Assembly (NCBI GenBank): GCA_017615515.1
Contig: JAFZZX010000060.1
Location: 1-6,658, forward strand
Source: Clostridia bacterium
Lineage (GTDB): Bacteria > Bacillota > Clostridia > Christensenellales > CAG-1252
DNA: 6,658 bases
Reading direction: 5' to 3'
A program made the translations under genes and the position numbers. The notes beneath the pieces are model-generated. The model was given only the letters and a program-made list of their open reading frames with translations. It did no database searches and was not told where the DNA came from. Below are positions 1-6,658 of this stretch, in pieces (within the stretch, counting starts at the first letter, position 1; each line of letters begins with the position of its first letter).

Positions 1-1044
1 AAGTACGGCGACTTTATGCGCGCGGCGTCCCATACTGCCGAAGAGGTGGAGATCGCACTCGGCATTCCCGAAAAAGCGCGTTCCATTATGAACACCTACT
101 GGGGCTACCTCGGCGTCCCGACCGACGACCTGTCCGCTCTGCACTTCATCAGCCTGTTGACCGCCTATATGGAGGTCAAACCCACGATGCCCTACAACCG
201 CTCGCACGAACTCTCCTTGAACCTCGTGAAAGCCTTTGAAGGATTCGGCGGCGAGATCCGCTACAACAGCGAAGTCACCCGCTTCCTCTACGATGAGAAA
301 GGCAAGGCGATCGGCGTGGTCGCGAACGGCGAAGAGTACTTTGCGAAAAAGATCGTTGCCAACGTAATCCCGAACAACGTGATCAATCGCTCGGACGCGA
401 AGAAACTACCGAAGCGTTTCCGCAAACTCGCGAACGCAAGAAAGTTCGGCATGACCTTCGTAACCGTCTATCTCGGACTCGACAAGTCGAGAGAAGAGCT
501 CGGCATCGACGACTATTCGGTTTTCATCACGCGTGACAAGGATCCGCGCGTGCAATTCGAGACCCGCAATGACTGCGGCTACTACGTCGTCAACTGCCTG
601 AACAAGGCGCTCCCCGACGCGACGCCCAAGGGCACGTCCACCCTCTTCTTCACGATCCCCTTTATGCCGGGCGACTTCCCCGAAGATCTGACGGCGCGTG
701 ATTACAAAGAGTTCAAGAACTCGATCGCGGAAAAGTATATCAAGGACTACGAGGAGACGATGGGCATCTCCATCAGACCCTATATCGAGGAGATCTCGAT
801 CGCCTCGCCCGTGACCTTCGCGCGCTACCTCGGCACCCCCGAAGGCGCGATCTACGGCTACGACACCGGCAACTGGGACAACGTCGTGGGACGCACCGCG
901 ATGGAACCGATGGAGTTCAACGTCCCGAATCTGTATTTCTGCGGCGGTCACTCCACGATGGGCGACGGCTTCCCCTCCGGCTATATCACCGGAGACAGGA
1001 TCGGTAAAAGAGTCGTGAAAGATTTACGCAAGGAGGGCAAATAA
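1..1044 (+). CDS. NAD(P)/FAD-dependent oxidoreductase, phytoene desaturase-like (5'-truncated by window)
   Basis: The reading frame is open from base 1 (Lys-Tyr-Gly-Asp-Phe before the first internal Met at base 16), so the gene begins outside the window; 347 residues are visible. The N-terminal Rossmann GxGxxG that would bind FAD is not included. Visible residues 66-125 have the typical mid-region of CrtI/amine-oxidase-like flavoproteins: a helix, then 'GGEIRYNSEVTRF', then 'GVVANGEEYFAKKIVANVIPN', a strand that usually carries substrate or FAD contacts. The C-terminus (visible residues 315-338, beginning GGHSTMGDGFPSGYITGD) is the characteristic closing FAD-binding motif of this superfamily. 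The substrate cannot be read from the sequence; carotenoid desaturation is only the family's namesake. The downstream reductase starts one base after this stop codon, so the two are almost certainly co-transcribed and probably exchange electrons (inference). Confidence 0.85.
   Translation, partial: KYGDFMRAASHTAEEVEIALGIPEKARSIMNTYWGYLGVPTDDLSALHFISLLTAYMEVKPTMPYNRSHELSLNLVKAFEGFGGEIRYNSEVTRFLYDEKGKAIGVVANGEEYFAKKIVANVIPNNVINRSDAKKLPKRFRKLANARKFGMTFVTVYLGLDKSREELGIDDYSVFITRDKDPRVQFETRNDCGYYVVNCLNKALPDATPKGTSTLFFTIPFMPGDFPEDLTARDYKEFKNSIAEKYIKDYEETMGISIRPYIEEISIASPVTFARYLGTPEGAIYGYDTGNWDNVVGRTAMEPMEFNVPNLYFCGGHSTMGDGFPSGYITGDRIGKRVVKDLRKEGK
1030..1037 (+). promoter_or_regulatory. Ribosome binding site of the reductase gene, inside the upstream gene
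   Basis: AAGGAGGG lies in the last codons of the flavoprotein gene, 8 bases before the ATG at 1046. It fixes that start and supports coupled translation of the pair. Confidence 0.85.
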
Positions 1045-3185: not shown

Positions 3186-4550
3186 TTATTCCACGGGTTT
3201 CGTGTAGTAGATGCGGTAGCTGTCTTGCAGGATGGGAGCGTCGTCATCGTCGGATAATTGATGAATGATCGCGTTGCGGAAGGTCAGCACCAGATAGTCG
3301 TCCGAGGGAATGCGCGCGGACGTGACCCCCTTCGGCAGGTCGCGAGACAAGAGGTAGTCGTCCTCCCCGTTGATCCGCCAATACCGCTTGAGAAAGTCTT
3401 CGAGGTCGCCGTTCCATCCGTCCTCGACGGCGATGGATGCTCGGTGGGGCGCGCCGACGGTATAGATCCCGGGGCGGCGCGTCGAATAAACCTCGAGATA
3501 GTAGAGGTCCTTTTCCCCTTTCAGCGGAACGTAGGGATGAAAGCGAAGGGCGTAATACAGCGCATCCATCGACCGCTCCTCGTCGTAACAGATCACGTAA
3601 TCCTCGGCATCGGGCGGAACCTCGACCCCCTTCAGCAGAGAGAGGTCGCAGGTGGTCGCGGCATTCTCACAACCGACTGCCGCCTCAAAGGAGGTCACAG
3701 CCGGCTCGTACTCGTTATACAGAAACGCCTTTCCTATGGGACTCCATACCCCCGTTTCTTCGTCCCGCTCCAACTCCACCGCAAACACGAGGAAGAGGGC
3801 GTGACGGTCGGTCGGACGATAGATCTTGTAAAGCTGCAAAAATTCATCCGCGGAGATCGCCTTGCCCCCGATGATTCCGGTCACGGGGAGACCGTTCCTG
3901 CCGTAGGAGTAGGTCTTCGTATTCAGGTTGACGTACAAAAAGGACTTGACTCGGGGCGAGGTGCCCAAGCTCCATTCGCGAAAACCGTCCTCTCGCAGCA
4001 TTTTCACGAGGGGGAAGGAGGGCGATTTGAGTCGATCGTCTTGGATCAGGAACGCCTCCTTACCGATCTCCGCCTCGGCGGGGAGGTCGGACAGCGCCGC
4101 AGAGCCGCGAAAAGAGCCTTCGGCGGCGAGGAGCATACGCAAGGCGGGATAGTAGCATTCCTCCCGTTTGCGCCGAAAATGGCGCGTGTCGGCGCCGCGC
4201 TTCACCTCGCAATTGTGTTTGAGGTCGGCGATCTTGACCCGACGAGCGAGAGGATTATCCTTGATCTTAGCGACGTAATCGGCGTACGGCACGCCCTTGA
4301 CGTGGGTCAAGAGGGCGAGCGCGGCGAGGATCTCCTCGCCGAACCCCTCTCGCCTGAGATCGTCGAGGGTCACGGAGGTGTCCTCGACTACGTCGTGGAG
4401 AAGCGCGACGACCGTCGAGTCCTCGTCCGACATCTGCTCCGCGAGATGATAGGGGTGCAAAAAATACGGGTACCCAGCGTTATCCACCTGCCCCGCGTGC
4501 GCCTCGTAGGCGATCTTGATCGCTTTTTTCACTTTGTCGGAATAGAACAT
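3186..4550 (-). CDS. HD-domain phosphohydrolase (SpoT/MESH1-type) with unassigned C-terminal region
   Basis: A 454-residue protein. Residues about 1-145 match the (p)ppGpp hydrolase-type HD domain: H18, Q21-x-D with GYPYFLHP (H32), the catalytic cluster LLHDVVEDT (H52, D53, E56, D57), the LT-x8-Y-x3-I segment, and VKIADLKHN (D109, N113). Spacing of H32/H52-D53/E56-D57/D109-N113 fits the metal and catalytic residues of Rel/SpoT and MESH1 hydrolases, so alarmone (or another nucleotide phosphate) hydrolysis is plausible. No synthetase, TGS or ACT domain is present. Residues about 150-454 are acidic, with no transmembrane segment, and I recognise no family in them. The start ATG (4550) has AAAAGGG 10 bases upstream. 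A 6+6 inverted repeat and a repeat array lie upstream; a strong terminator lies downstream. Confidence 0.8.
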   Translation of the reverse strand: MFYSDKVKKAIKIAYEAHAGQVDNAGYPYFLHPYHLAEQMSDEDSTVVALLHDVVEDTSVTLDDLRREGFGEEILAALALLTHVKGVPYADYVAKIKDNPLARRVKIADLKHNCEVKRGADTRHFRRKREECYYPALRMLLAAEGSFRGSAALSDLPAEAEIGKEAFLIQDDRLKSPSFPLVKMLREDGFREWSLGTSPRVKSFLYVNLNTKTYSYGRNGLPVTGIIGGKAISADEFLQLYKIYRPTDRHALFLVFAVELERDEETGVWSPIGKAFLYNEYEPAVTSFEAAVGCENAATTCDLSLLKGVEVPPDAEDYVICYDEERSMDALYYALRFHPYVPLKGEKDLYYLEVYSTRRPGIYTVGAPHRASIAVEDGWNGDLEDFLKRYWRINGEDDYLLSRDLPKGVTSARIPSDDYLVLTFRNAIIHQLSDDDDAPILQDSYRIYYTKPVE

Positions 4551-4560
4551 AATCTAAATA

Positions 4561-4567
4561 CCCTTTT
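4561..4567 (-). promoter_or_regulatory. Ribosome binding site of the HD gene
   Basis: On the minus strand AAAAGGG lies 10 bases before the ATG at 4550. It is a modest Shine-Dalgarno, but the only one near an in-frame start. Confidence 0.55.
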
Positions 4568-4576
4568 TGCTCACGA

Positions 4577-4589
4577 CCGCAAATTGCGG
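4577..4589. promoter_or_regulatory. Inverted repeat, possible operator upstream of the HD gene
   Basis: CCGCAA-A-TTGCGG: perfect 6-base arms around a single central base, 27 bases upstream of the start codon of the minus-strand HD gene. It is compact and symmetric like a small repressor half-site pair. No confident -35/-10 pair is visible beside it, so operator function is an inference. Confidence 0.35.
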
Positions 4590-4597
4590 ACAGTTGC

Positions 4598-4872
4598 GCG
4601 GAGACGAGTGCTCTTGACTTACCCTAATAGGTCAAAACCTTTCCCTTACCCGATTACCATGGGGAAAGCGGCAGAGACGAGGACTCTCTTCATCCTTTCT
4701 AATACTATCCTCACAAATGGCGAGTGAGGAGATAGGTCAAAATCGCTCTCTTGCTTTTCTTACTCGATTGACTTTGGAGAAAGGCTCAGATGCAAGGCTC
4801 GTTTCTTCTCTTCTCATTCTATCCTCACAAATGGCGAGTGAGGAGAGTGGTGTGGAGGCAAGTGCTCTCCGA
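4598..4872 (+). repeat. Degenerate A/B repeat array 1 (two units plus fragments)
   Basis: This array has two units and an older fragment. The fragment 4598-4614 resembles the end of a B element (GGAGACGAGTGCTCT). Unit 1a has a decayed A element from about 4653 and a B element from 4718. Unit 1b has an intact A element at 4767-4800 and B from 4832. The 34-bp A element is identical in units 1b, 2b and 2c. Linkers before A elements are also related (TAGGTCAAAA at 4629 and 4734). A-to-B spacers are pyrimidine-rich and end in ATCCTCACAA. In units 1a and 1b, TCCTCAC pairs with GTGAGGA around a 9-base loop (4708-4730, 4822-4844), and unit 1b adds GGAGAG/CTCTCC (4842-4870). The array fills the otherwise gene-free space upstream of the HD gene. 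Confidence 0.85.
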
Positions 4873-4950
4873 AGAGGCGGGCAGGCGCGTACTGATGCGT
4901 ACGTAACTGCCCGACGATGAGGTAGTTAGCGAAGCATACGCGCCGCTATG
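4871..4950 (+). repeat. Terminal hairpin segment, copy 1
   Basis: This segment of about 80 bp follows the last B element and is nearly identical to 6580-6658. It can form two alternative structures. Fold 1 (4878-4913): CGGGCAG/CTGCCCG, 7 bp, enclosing CGTAC/GTACG with a TGATGC loop. Fold 2 (4884-4944): GGCGCGTA/TACGCGCC, 8 bp, then TGC/GCA, then TAACTGCC/GGTAGTTA around a 9-base loop, with one G-T pair. Bases 4884-4911 are used by both, so they exclude each other. The segment ends one base before the stop codon of the minus-strand phosphodiesterase gene. It could act as a structured RNA, a gene-end element, or a DNA hairpin recognised by an enzyme; the sequence does not decide. Confidence 0.8.
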
Positions 4951-4951
4951 C

Positions 4952-6133
4952 TCACTCGCCCAAAAACATACCGTAGGGAACCCGTCCCTGCCACGTCTCG
5001 GGCGCCTTCAGCCCCAACGCGTAGGTGACGATCGGCGCAAGATCGGTATTCACGTACTTGCCGGGCGTGCCCTGCTTCACGGTCTTGCCCGCGATCGCGA
5101 AGGTGACGGTGCGCTCCACCTTGCTGTTGCCGCCGTGTCCGGGTCCGTCCTGCAGATAGCGGTGACCGTGGTCGGTGCAGAGGATAAAGAGGGTGTCGTC
5201 CAGCCAGCCGCGCGCCTCATAGGCGTCGTAGAGCTTGCCGATCAAGAGGTCCACGTGCGAGACCGCGCGAATGTAGGCGTGCTTATTATTGCCGTAGCTG
5301 TGTCCCGCGGAATCCACCTGATTGAGGTGCATATACGCGATCTTGTAGTCGGCTGTCTCCGTCTCGTCGATGACTCTCTGCACGGTGACCGCGTCGGTCA
5401 AGGAGTAGGTCTCGTCCGCGAAACCCTCGACCTTGGTCTGCTGTGCGATGTATTGGACGAGGTCGACGTCGCCGAGCACCAATTCGCCATTCAAGATCTC
5501 GTGAAGGGTATTGCAATTGTTGTTGAGCTTCCTGACCTGCGGCAGATCCTCGATCGCGCCGTTATTGACCGCGCTCCAGGTGCAGGAAGACAGCACTTTC
5601 GCATCGGGATTCGCATCCAAGAAAACCTTGATGAAGGAAGGATACTTCTCGTTTGCCTGCTTGCCCGCGTCGAGGTCCGTATTCGAATTCGCGCCCGTGA
5701 TGCCGTGATAAGGCGGGCGTACGCCGTGGAACATACTCGTCCAATTCTGCGCGCTGATGGTCGGATAAACCGCCATCCCGGTGTGGGTCACCGAGGCATT
5801 GATCCTCGTGCCGTTCGCAGTCGTGAAGCCGTCGCCGAAAAGCCTATCGAAATTGGGCGTGGCGCCGTCGTCCATTCGTTTCATATAGTCGCCCATGCCG
5901 TCCACGCCGATGATCAGGACGCGCTTGTATTGCTTGGCAGGGTCGCTGTTGATCGCCGCAAGCTCTGCGTCGGTCGGGACGTACCCTTCCGAGAAACGAT
6001 TGAAGACGAAAGCGCCGAGACAAGAGAGGGCAACGACCGCGCAAACGAGGACGAACGCCGTGATCGCGATCGCGACCGTCCTGCCCTTGTGCGCCTGAAT
6101 GGCGGAAATAATCTTTGCGAAACAATCCTTCAT
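4952..6133 (-). CDS. Membrane-anchored phosphodiesterase/nucleotide pyrophosphatase-like enzyme (alkaline phosphatase superfamily)
   Basis: A 393-residue protein from the ATG at 6133. Basic residues near the N-terminus (AHKGR) are followed by one hydrophobic segment at about 20-45, so it is a signal anchor with the enzyme outside the cytoplasm. The catalytic domain starts at RVLIIGVDGMG (D78, first metal ligand). PTISAQN follows with S127 aligned to the nucleophilic Thr of NPP-type enzymes, then the HGITG motif (H143). LNQVDSAGHSYG gives D274 and H278, TDHGH gives D321 and H322, and GPGHGG gives H333. Together these are the two-metal set of type I phosphodiesterases; a sulfatase-like label would fit less well because no Cys/Ser-x-Pro-x-Arg motif is present. 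The substrate is unknown. The ATG at 6133 is preceded by AGGGGG; an upstream in-frame TTG at 6193 has no such site and runs toward the repeat array. C38 could be a lipidation site, but the preceding residues fit a lipobox poorly. Confidence 0.85.
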   Translation of the reverse strand: MKDCFAKIISAIQAHKGRTVAIAITAFVLVCAVVALSCLGAFVFNRFSEGYVPTDAELAAINSDPAKQYKRVLIIGVDGMGDYMKRMDDGATPNFDRLFGDGFTTANGTRINASVTHTGMAVYPTISAQNWTSMFHGVRPPYHGITGANSNTDLDAGKQANEKYPSFIKVFLDANPDAKVLSSCTWSAVNNGAIEDLPQVRKLNNNCNTLHEILNGELVLGDVDLVQYIAQQTKVEGFADETYSLTDAVTVQRVIDETETADYKIAYMHLNQVDSAGHSYGNNKHAYIRAVSHVDLLIGKLYDAYEARGWLDDTLFILCTDHGHRYLQDGPGHGGNSKVERTVTFAIAGKTVKQGTPGKYVNTDLAPIVTYALGLKAPETWQGRVPYGMFLGE

Positions 6134-6136
6134 AAA

Positions 6137-6142
6137 TCCCCC
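6137..6142 (-). promoter_or_regulatory. Ribosome binding site of the phosphodiesterase gene
   Basis: On the minus strand AGGGGG lies about 4 bases before the ATG at 6133 (counting from the last G). It is the reason for preferring that start over the in-frame TTG 60 bases further upstream. Confidence 0.65.
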
Positions 6143-6193
6143 TAAATGAGCTTTCGGTTCTCGGCAATCCCGATTCCTTTTTCGGTTTCTCAA

Positions 6194-6582
6194 TTCAAAA
6201 TCAACTTTGGTGAAGGCTTAGAGCCCTCCCCCTCTCCTCGACCATCCAAAAATCGGCGTGTGAGGAGAGTGGTGTGGAGACGAGTGCTCATGATTCTCCC
6301 AAACAGATCAAGAGCCTTTCTTTCCCTTTTCCTCACTCGATTGACTTTGGAGAAAGGCTCAGATGCAAGGCTCTATCCTTTCTTCTTATACTATCCTCAC
6401 AATCGGCGAGTGAGGAGAGTGGTGTGGAGACGAGTGCTCTCCGATTACTACCCTTCTCTTAATAGTTCAGACACAATTGACTTTGGAGAAAGGCTCAGAT
6501 GCAAGGCTCTTCTATCCTTTCTCTCACACGTCCTATCAATCGGCGAGTGAGGAGAGTGGTGTGGAGACGAGCGCTCTCCGAA
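6194..6582 (+). repeat. A/B repeat array 2 (three units)
   Basis: Three tandem units of about 136-150 bp. A elements start at 6200 (decayed, 2a), 6340 (2b) and 6476 (2c); B elements start at 6253, 6403 and 6540. The A elements of 2b and 2c (6340-6373, 6476-6509) are identical to that of unit 1b over 34 bases. Each B element carries GAGGAGAGTGGTGTGGAGAC, here with CGAGTGCTC or CGAGCGCTC after it. Unit 2b keeps the TCCTCAC/GTGAGGA hairpin (6394-6416); 2a and 2c have lost it. A 9-bp inverted repeat GAGCCTTTC/GAAAGGCTC (6312-6320 with 6352-6360) joins the linker to the A element of 2b only. The array fills the gene-free 500 bp upstream of the phosphodiesterase gene. I see no protein-coding gene in it. 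Confidence 0.85.
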
Positions 6583-6658
6583 GAGGCGGGCAGGCGCGTA
6601 CTGATGCGTACGTAACTGCCCGACGATGAGGTAGTTAGCGAAGTATACGCGCCGCTAT
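6580..6658 (+). repeat. Terminal hairpin segment, copy 2 (runs to window edge)
   Basis: Same segment as 4871-4950, offset by exactly 1,709 bases. Fold 1 lies at 6587-6622 and fold 2 at 6593-6653. Within the hairpins the only difference from copy 1 is C4935 to T6644; in fold 2 this turns a G-C pair of the TGC/GCA stem into a G-T (G-U) pair, so pairing is kept on the + strand. By analogy with copy 1, a minus-strand gene may end just beyond the window edge. Confidence 0.8.

What the first reader, a model, noticed from the sequence alone, without database searches (positions are those of the whole stretch)
4598..6658. Two repeat blocks with identical architecture flank a gene, giving a cassette-like period of 1,709 bp
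Both blocks have the same order in the same orientation: A/B units, then a terminal hairpin segment. Bases 4832-4949 match 6541-6658 with about 5 mismatches, no indels, and a constant offset of 1,709. Between them sits one complete minus-strand gene, and the block to its left precedes another minus-strand gene. So each minus-strand gene has a block on its upstream side and, for the phosphodiesterase, a terminal segment touching its stop codon. That resembles gene-plus-recombination-site cassettes (as in integrons) or a dispersed repeat family that lands at gene boundaries. I know of no named family that I can match to it.
Basis: partly seen in the sequence, partly recalled or inferred. Interest (0 to 1): 0.75.

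Follow-up and report, generated by a model that had tools for sequence, protein, structure and literature searches.

The report
ERIC-like hairpin repeat behind stop codons
The two repeat blocks end in copies of a 125-letter hairpin repeat that sits directly behind the stop codons of many genes in gut and rumen Clostridia and matches, in a structure-based search, the ERIC repeats of E. coli and its kin; it is likely a mobile element that overwrites its own older copies and takes the place of the gene's usual transcription stop signal.

Summary
The repeats are real (5 mismatches in 118 nt, offset 1,709) but are not integron-like cassettes. Each block ends in a ~125-nt element that folds as one long imperfect hairpin (39 pairs, 25 with changes on both sides; 0 of 500 shuffles as good). 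The A and B units are half-elements, read as remains of older copies. The window's genome has 51 model matches; 12 of 13 genomes of the genus have 24-74, and 22 of 125 sampled genera of the order have some, as do Selenomonadales, a deltaproteobacterium and others picked by pattern. A model built without any ERIC finds enterobacterial ERIC in 5 of 6 loci at E 1.6e-8 to 3.3e-6: an ERIC-like superfamily, not ERIC proper (no TA ends). One end abuts a converging gene's stop codon in 78 of 99 testable copies of the order, the other end in 3 of 98. Orthologous ends without the element have an ordinary terminator in 14 of 23 cases; beyond elements it is 8 of 62. Half-elements lie mainly on the gene-distal side, and the unit-A type is still complete at the paralogous site in two relatives, which suggests serial replacement. 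The likeness of the two blocks is younger than the ancient tandem gene pair they follow. Mobility and function are inferred; the mover is unknown.

The parts
4833..4960 (+). Complete ERIC-like element 1 (128 nt with both outer arms, GGCGAGTGAG...CTCACTCGCC); its 3' arm covers the stop codon of the minus-strand phosphodiesterase gene
   Evidence: R1 match 4834-4959, 132.4 bits, E 1.3e-27; one of the 17 sequences of the model; alignment and folding
6542..6658 (+). Element 2, cut by the contig end; continues as the end of contig C122
   Evidence: R1 match 6555-6658, 99.6 bits; 4 mismatches in 117 nt to element 1; C122 end
4768..4800 (+). Unit A, 5' half of an older element with arm TTGACTTTGG
   Evidence: Exact unit; the same arm and start occur in complete elements behind PDE2 in G010 and G001
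6341..6373 (+). Unit A, second copy
   Evidence: Exact unit
6477..6509 (+). Unit A, third copy
   Evidence: Exact unit
6405..6444 (+). Unit B as a half-element (5' half of the element-1/2 type)
   Evidence: Direct repeats D1; own-genome hits
6254..6289 (+). Unit B half-element, further from the gene
   Evidence: Own-genome hit 6251-6289, 95%
4719..4750 (+). Decayed unit B
   Evidence: Repeat family D1, 64%
6201..6225 (+). Decayed unit A, read by eye
   Evidence: Sequence; no separate hit
4598..4612 (+). Decayed start of a B-like unit
   Evidence: Repeat family D4, 73%
4952..6133 (-). Phosphodiesterase PDE1 (type I phosphodiesterase / nucleotide pyrophosphatase), stop codon inside element 1
   Evidence: PF01663 E 3.7e-20; relatives in 13 of 13 genus genomes
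3186..4550 (-). HD-domain gene whose start faces the left block; neighbour, not part of the element
   Evidence: PF13328 E 1.1e-7

Best explanation
Each block is a stack of copies of a ~125-nt ERIC-like hairpin element that lies in one polarity directly behind a gene's stop codon, where the complete copy next to the gene likely arrived last as a non-autonomous mobile element, removed the gene-proximal half of its predecessor and took the place of the gene's terminator. Shown here: the dispersed family; the covarying single hairpin; the structure-model match to enterobacterial ERIC; the stop-codon abutment in one polarity; presence or absence of the element at orthologous genes; half-elements mainly on the gene-distal side; few ordinary terminators beyond the element. 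Inferred: that copies move; that a new copy comes to stand between stop codon and old copy; that the strand opposite the host gene is the one that must fold (as single-stranded DNA or as antisense RNA); that the hairpin ends or protects the mRNA in place of the terminator. The close match of the window's two blocks is inferred to come from recent conversion or duplication between the 3' ends of two old tandem genes.
For: Dispersal: 51 own-genome model matches at E up to 0.1, at least one being the reverse strand of another; 13 of 13 genus genomes match, twelve with 24-74 and G006 with one; 48 of 297 genomes and 22 of 125 genera in an order sample. Structure: 93.7% of cells paired, 25 of 39 pairs with two-sided changes, covariation score 0.528 against 0.202 in shuffles, 0 of 500 as high. 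ERIC: model R2, built from 38 copies without any enterobacterial ERIC, gives E 1.6e-8, 9.7e-8, 2.4e-6, 2.4e-6, 3.3e-6 in five of six loci, next hit 0.68, and one hit in 53 kb of E. coli K-12, 3 nt behind ybhI. Location: gene-proximal end abuts the stop of a frame of 100 codons or more in 23/25 (G000), 23/36 (G008), 17/18 (other genus), 15/20 (other genera); distal end 0/25, 2/34, 0/19, 1/20; random positions 378/6000. Homology-based gene frames agree. Turnover: upp carries an element in 5 of 10 genus genomes in which upp was found. Terminators: 14 of 23 empty orthologous ends against 8 of 62 beyond elements (Fisher p 2.4e-5); inside the element, gene sense, a terminator-like hairpin with T-run in 20/29 (G000) and 18/36 (G008) against 11-13% in shuffles. 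Layers: orphan 5' halves against orphan 3' halves 14 to 2 in G008, 12 of the 14 distal and same strand; 16 to 3 in G000, 14 of the 16 distal and same strand. Folded strand: G/T 65 against A/C 7 at paired columns.
Against: No insertion was caught with exact edges: the genus genomes are too diverged for that. The published TA ends of ERIC are absent in the 18 copies shown. Plain blastn of element 1 finds no plasmid record although 283 plasmid records match the ERIC core, so the relation rests on the structure model. One of six ERIC loci (L247) is not found by R2 (E 0.71 over 24 nt). Outside the order the abutment is weaker: 10 of 20, and ERIC 3 of 5. In G010 the elements behind PDE1 and PDE2 are only 54% alike, so likeness within a genome is not a rule. 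The G/T excess points to the strand opposite the mRNA, which does not favour a pure mRNA-terminator role; pairs were chosen with RNA rules that allow G-U. The two elements of the window have no T-run hairpin: no minus-strand terminator-like site in 4400-6658. A T-run straight behind the distal arm occurs in 9/29 G000 but 1/36 G008 copies; ERIC has no internal terminator-like hairpin in 5 of 5. Of the 23 'empty' ends, picked by hand, at least one (G011 PDE1) shows by eye an eroded element. Neither reverse transcriptase nor Y1 transposase tracks the element.
Confidence: 0.72

Rival explanations
1. Simple local duplication: the two blocks are alike because one gene-plus-repeat unit was copied in tandem, and nothing is dispersed or mobile.
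For: The blocks flank tandem paralogues; units A and B alternate with a ~136-nt spacing as in a tandem array. In G002 the elements behind PDE1 and PDE2 are 98% alike and the last 30 codons 94% against 53-70% elsewhere, a conversion tract.
Against: The genes are only 55% alike in protein while the elements differ at 4 of 117 sites; the family is genome-wide and in all 13 genus genomes. It explains the likeness of the two blocks, not the element.
Confidence: 0.08
2. A resident 3'-end RNA module, inherited with its gene and kept paired by compensatory change, not a mobile element.
For: Some elements are shared at orthologous stop codons between G000 and G008 (L038, L039, L040, L042, L052, L054, L063) and upp elements of G000, G008 and G005 share a core type by eye; strong covariation; loss of ordinary terminators.
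Against: Many orthologous ends lack it, including all those seen in G006; copies at different genes share cores up to 92%; half-elements pile up behind complete ones.
Confidence: 0.18
3. The pairing of the outer stem is kept by mutational correction of imperfect palindromes during replication (template switching), not by selection on a folded strand.
For: Copies with 92%, 89% and 87% identical cores have outer stems only 45%, 35% and 25% alike, each still self-complementary. The mechanism itself is recalled, not looked up.
Against: Conserved internal mismatches beside the apical stem and a G/T pair kept in 16 of 17 copies would be erased by such correction; G/T outnumber A/C 65 to 7.
Confidence: 0.12
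4. Integron-like gene cassettes with attC-type recombination sites.
For: The element is a folded site just behind a stop codon and the gene-opposite strand is the one constrained, as recalled for attC.
Against: Elements lie singly behind different genes on many contigs, orthologous genes lack them elsewhere, the outermost arms vary freely, no Rfam match.
Confidence: 0.03

Closest known systems
ERIC / IRU / RU-1 (enterobacterial repetitive intergenic consensus); PMC2229807, PMC2267715, PMC10969869, PMC2759123, passages read
   Same: About 127 bp, a single long stem-loop, dispersed between genes; full-length structure-model match in 5 of 6 loci; in 3 of 5 ERIC copies the same end abuts a stop codon in the same polarity; PMC2759123 describes an ERIC fused to a gene's 3' end with loss of its stop codon.
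   Different: Other bacterial classes; outer stem differs from copy to copy; no TA ends in the 18 copies; layered half-elements; internal terminator-like hairpin in 20/29 and 18/36 copies here but 0/5 ERIC. PMC10969869 gives the range of ERIC as Enterobacteriaceae and Vibrionaceae.
REP/BIME palindromes with Y1 (RAYT) transposases (PMC3733652, search listing; otherwise recalled)
   Same: Small dispersed palindromes outside genes.
   Different: REPs are 20-40 bp in that abstract; Y1 transposase was found in only 3 of the 12 element-rich genus genomes, which are incomplete.
Other bacterial MITEs such as RUP, NEMIS/Correia, YPAL (table in PMC2229807)
   Same: 100-200 bp, non-coding, long stem-loop transcripts.
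   Different: No target-site duplication was seen and no parent insertion sequence was found; no sequence comparison with these families was made.
Integron attC sites (recalled)
   Same: Imperfect hairpin behind a stop codon; strand opposite the gene folded.
   Different: No cassette array, variable outermost arms, no Rfam match.
Multicopy nucleotide sequences of Geobacter genomes (PMC2700814, PMC2996986, passages; their alignments were not seen)
   Same: Palindromic families between genes in Deltaproteobacteria; the deltaproteobacterial copies may belong to such a family (guess).
   Different: Not linked to ERIC in the passages read; sequences not compared.

Membership tests
ERIC / IRU / RU-1 | About 127 bp, one long imperfect stem-loop | tested here: met
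   17 copies of 120-129 nt, one hairpin with covariation
ERIC / IRU / RU-1 | Homology over the full length | tested here: met
   R2 without ERIC training: 5 of 6 loci, positions 1-124, E 1.6e-8 to 3.3e-6; K-12 copy E 1.8e-5; R1: E 2.7e-4 to 0.43 in the same five
ERIC / IRU / RU-1 | TA dinucleotide at the ends and as target duplication | tested here: not met
   0 of the 18 copies printed begin and end with TA; so not filed as ERIC proper
ERIC / IRU / RU-1 | Similarity visible by plain nucleotide comparison | tested here: not met
   blastn of element 1 against plasmids, no match at 1e-5, while 283 plasmid records match the ERIC core
MITE (class II, non-autonomous) | Terminal inverted repeats | tested here: met
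   Outer stem, 91.8% of cells paired
MITE (class II, non-autonomous) | Target-site duplication | tested here: inconclusive
   No close empty site for exact edges
MITE (class II, non-autonomous) | Transposase acting in trans | tested here: inconclusive
   Only RVT_1 (0 of 12 element-rich genus genomes) and Y1_Tnp (3 of 12) searched, in incomplete genomes; DDE families not searched
Integron cassette / attC | Integrase and cassette array | not tested
   No integrase search; scattered single copies argue against an array
Rfam families | Match at gathering score | tested here: not met
   0 in the window; in seven loci at E up to 1 only a sub-threshold Gut-1 match outside the element

The most novel reading that the evidence does not exclude
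ERIC is the enterobacterial branch of a superfamily of hairpin elements shared by several bacterial phyla that home to stop codons in one polarity, serve as interchangeable 3'-end modules in place of terminators, carry a new self-complementary outer stem at every site, and overwrite one another in order, leaving half-elements like tree rings; the strand opposite the gene is the folded one, which points to a single-stranded DNA intermediate.
Probability: 0.33. Interest if true: 0.88.

Novelty: new variant of a known kind. Interest (0 to 1): 0.7.

Why it matters
ERIC repeats have served strain typing for decades, but as far as I recall their origin, mover and target rule are unknown. A structure-level relation to repeats in Clostridia and other phyla, one polarity behind stop codons and layered remnants make these questions testable: which enzyme do carriers share, does the hairpin replace the terminator, and how is the outer stem made. 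The repeats may also explain why contigs of this genome end at gene ends, as C192 and C122 do.

Tried and rejected
Described RNA families: none. Integron cassettes: see rivals. Reverse transcription: RVT_1 in 0 of 12 element-rich genus genomes and in G006, which has one copy. RAYT: Y1_Tnp in 3 of 12. Outer arms taken from host sequence: by eye they do not resemble what follows the stop codon in empty orthologues. Vectors: the exact core pattern has 0 matches in viral contigs; the GGAGCGTACT...GTACGTGAC variant has 2, not examined; blastn of element 1 finds nothing in plasmids or phages. A first ORF-length gene call picked antisense frames and was replaced by protein homology and a mechanical stop-codon test. 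Papers: sequence words gave unrelated hits. That no paper found here links ERIC to Clostridia or other phyla rests only, in open-licence PMC papers; Wilson and Sharp 2006 is not held and supplements were not readable.

Limits and dropped rows. Stop-codon test: 29 of 51 G000 matches (those fetched with flanks; contig-end copy L064 left out), 36 G008 matches, 20 of the genus loci, 20 of other genera, 24 of outside genomes, 5 of 6 ERIC loci (L247 left out). The order survey scored 11 candidates per genome. In A2, 11 of 78 rows (weaker strand or repeat of the same place) were dropped before the strand count. G008 was 921 kb and G006 368 kb of about 1.4 Mb each. The 23 empty ends were picked by hand from those seen. 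The half-element model stops at the apex, so it cannot show halves that run further; at least one remnant (in L012/L054) does run past the apex. Infernal calibration was shortened, so E-values are rough.
Full report
OBSERVATION. The window is one whole contig (G000:C192) of a 1.12-Mb, 208-contig genome estimated 77% complete. Contigs of same-genus genomes have the lengths of records titled Christensenella sp. UBA3217, UBA3798 and others. The two blocks match as described: 5 mismatches in 118 nt, offset 1,709; the A unit and the B start are each exact at three places.

THE TERMINAL SEGMENT. Bases 4871-4950 have 26 hits in the own genome at 74-100% identity. Seventeen clean copies of 120-129 nt align end to end. 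Their consensus is one long imperfect hairpin of 39 pairs, 25 with changes on both sides. 93.7% of cells are paired; none of 500 shuffles reaches the observed value on any of five measures; sliding the partner by 1-3 columns drops pairing to 24-47%. The apical stem GCGTAC/GTACGT is nearly invariant and holds a G/T pair in 16 of 17 copies; the outer stem varies but pairs (91.8% of cells).

RANGE. Model R1, built from the 17 copies, gives 51 matches in the own genome at E up to 0.1, one place counted on both strands. All 13 genomes of the genus match: twelve have 24-74 matches, G006 one, near a contig start; of 7 genomes in other genera of the family one matches weakly. In a sample of the order 48 of 297 genomes and 22 of 125 genera match at E up to 1e-6. 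R1 on seven genomes chosen from these gives a full-length best match in each: E 6.8e-17 (Selenomonadales, 53 matches at E up to 1), 1.4e-10 (deltaproteobacterium, 10), 2.7e-8 (Myxococcales, 4), 1.8e-7 (Anaerofustis, 11), 2.9e-4 and 8.0e-4 (two Family XIII bins, 4 and 12), 0.0018 (Alteromonas, 1).

RELATION TO ERIC. The core reminded me of ERIC, which was then tested. R1 on six enterobacterial ERIC loci: the best hit of five lies on the ERIC, full length (E 2.7e-4, 2.7e-4, 0.0022, 0.027, 0.43); in the sixth (L247) E is 1.6. R2, built from 38 copies without any enterobacterial ERIC, gives E 1.6e-8, 9.7e-8, 2.4e-6, 2.4e-6, 3.3e-6 for the same five, full length; the best hit elsewhere is 0.68 and L247 reaches 0.71 over 24 nt. 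In 53 kb of E. coli K-12 the only hit up to E 10 lies between ybhI and ybhJ, 3 nt behind the ybhI stop, E 1.8e-5. Other long hairpin repeats were not scored as a control. Papers, passages only: ERIC is 127 bp with TA at its ends (PMC2229807), folds as a single stem-loop (PMC2267715), is given for Enterobacteriaceae and Vibrionaceae (PMC10969869). The copies here lack TA ends and have copy-specific arms, hence ERIC-like.

STOP CODONS. Protein homology to G008 and G006 showed the true gene frames around own copies; where a right-hand gene was identified it mostly ends within 14 nt of the element end. Mechanical test: a frame of at least 100 codons stops within 20 nt of the gene-proximal end in 23 of 25 (G000), 23 of 36 (G008), 17 of 18 (other genus), 15 of 20 (other genera), 10 of 20 (outside the order), 3 of 5 (ERIC); at the distal end 0/25, 2/34, 0/19, 1/20, 1/24, 1/5; random G008 positions 378 of 6000. 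Pooled for the order 78 of 99 against 3 of 98. Many offsets are -3 to +5; an offset of 14 recurs, where the frame reads into the element and stops inside it. Part of the G008 shortfall may be copies that lie behind another copy.

FILLED AND EMPTY SITES. upp carries an element in G000, G007, G008, G002 and G005 and none in G010, G006, G012, G011 and G003. Empty 3' ends show a terminator-like site within 150 nt in 14 of 23 cases; beyond elements 4 of 27 and 4 of 35; shuffles 4-5% (Fisher p 2.4e-5). Inside the element, read in gene sense, a terminator-like hairpin with a T-run is found in 20 of 29 G000 and 18 of 36 G008 copies, 10 of 24 outside the order and 0 of 5 ERIC, against 11 and 10 in antisense for G000 and G008 and 11-13% in shuffles. 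The window's own elements show no minus-strand site in the stricter scan. Terminator replacement is therefore plausible for the genus, not for every copy.

THE WINDOW'S TWO BLOCKS. PDE1 belongs to a tandem pair, side by side on one contig in G004, G007, G010, G011 and G012. In G000 the pair is 55% alike in protein, the elements behind them differ at 4 of 117 sites. Between species the elements at these genes are 41-75% alike, except G010/G001 at 98%; within genomes the PDE1 and PDE2 elements are 98% alike in G002, 78% in G007 and 54% in G010. In G002 the last 30 codons are 94% identical against 53-70% elsewhere: a conversion tract. In G000 the coding ends show no such excess (0.79, as in G010 0.79 and G007 0.81). 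The likeness of the two blocks is thus recent and local.

LAYERS. Units A and B are 5' halves of elements. In G008, 14 orphan 5' halves were found, 12 distal to a complete copy and on its strand, 2 proximal, against 2 orphan 3' halves; reversed sequence gave none. Within 600 nt of the 29 G000 copies it is 16 (14 distal and same strand) against 3. The A arm TTGACTTTGG heads elements that are still complete behind PDE2 in G010 and G001; the type also occurs at other sites, such as upp in G002 and behind upp in G008 (by eye). I read this as serial replacement. The 136-nt alternation of A and B in the right block looks like later tandem copying.

STRAND AND MOVER. At paired columns G/T outnumber A/C 65 to 7 in the own genome (49 to 7 without the invariant pair), 110 to 22 in the order and 83 to 19 outside it, so the strand opposite the host gene is the constrained one, with the caveat that RNA rules chose the pairs. 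Copies with 92%, 89% and 87% identical cores have outer stems 45%, 35% and 25% alike. Reverse transcriptase and Y1 transposase do not track the element. The mover is unknown.

VERDICT. A real, genome-wide, structured, ERIC-like element at gene 3' ends, new (as far as the searches named in Tried and rejected show) in host range, in its variable self-paired arms, in its polarity behind stop codons and in its layered remnants. Mobility and function are inferred.

Noticed in passing
L015 (around 1209-1300), L017 (around 1100-1150), L026, L128: A second palindromic repeat (GGGGTCCCC...CAATATTG...GTGGGGT and CACCCC...GGGGACCCCG) lies inside copies of the element, as if nested.
   Followed up: no
L016:1126-1199: Sub-threshold match to Gut-1 RNA (27.6 bits, gathering score 50), outside the element.
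   Followed up: no
G006: The genus member with one copy in 1.4 Mb is the only one of 13 with a reverse transcriptase match.
   Followed up: partly
window 16-1044: A 342-aa frame in an oxidoreductase-like neighbourhood has no Pfam match at 0.001.
   Followed up: no
G011 PDE1 (L341): The end counted as empty shows by eye an eroded element whose inner hairpin now has a T-run, as if turned into a terminator.
   Followed up: no
G002 PDE1/PDE2 (L343, L365): The last 30 codons of the paralogues are 94% identical against 53-70% elsewhere, a conversion tract next to 98% identical elements.
   Followed up: yes
L371, L372: Two viral-contig stretches carry the core variant GGAGCGTACT...GTACGTGAC.
   Followed up: no
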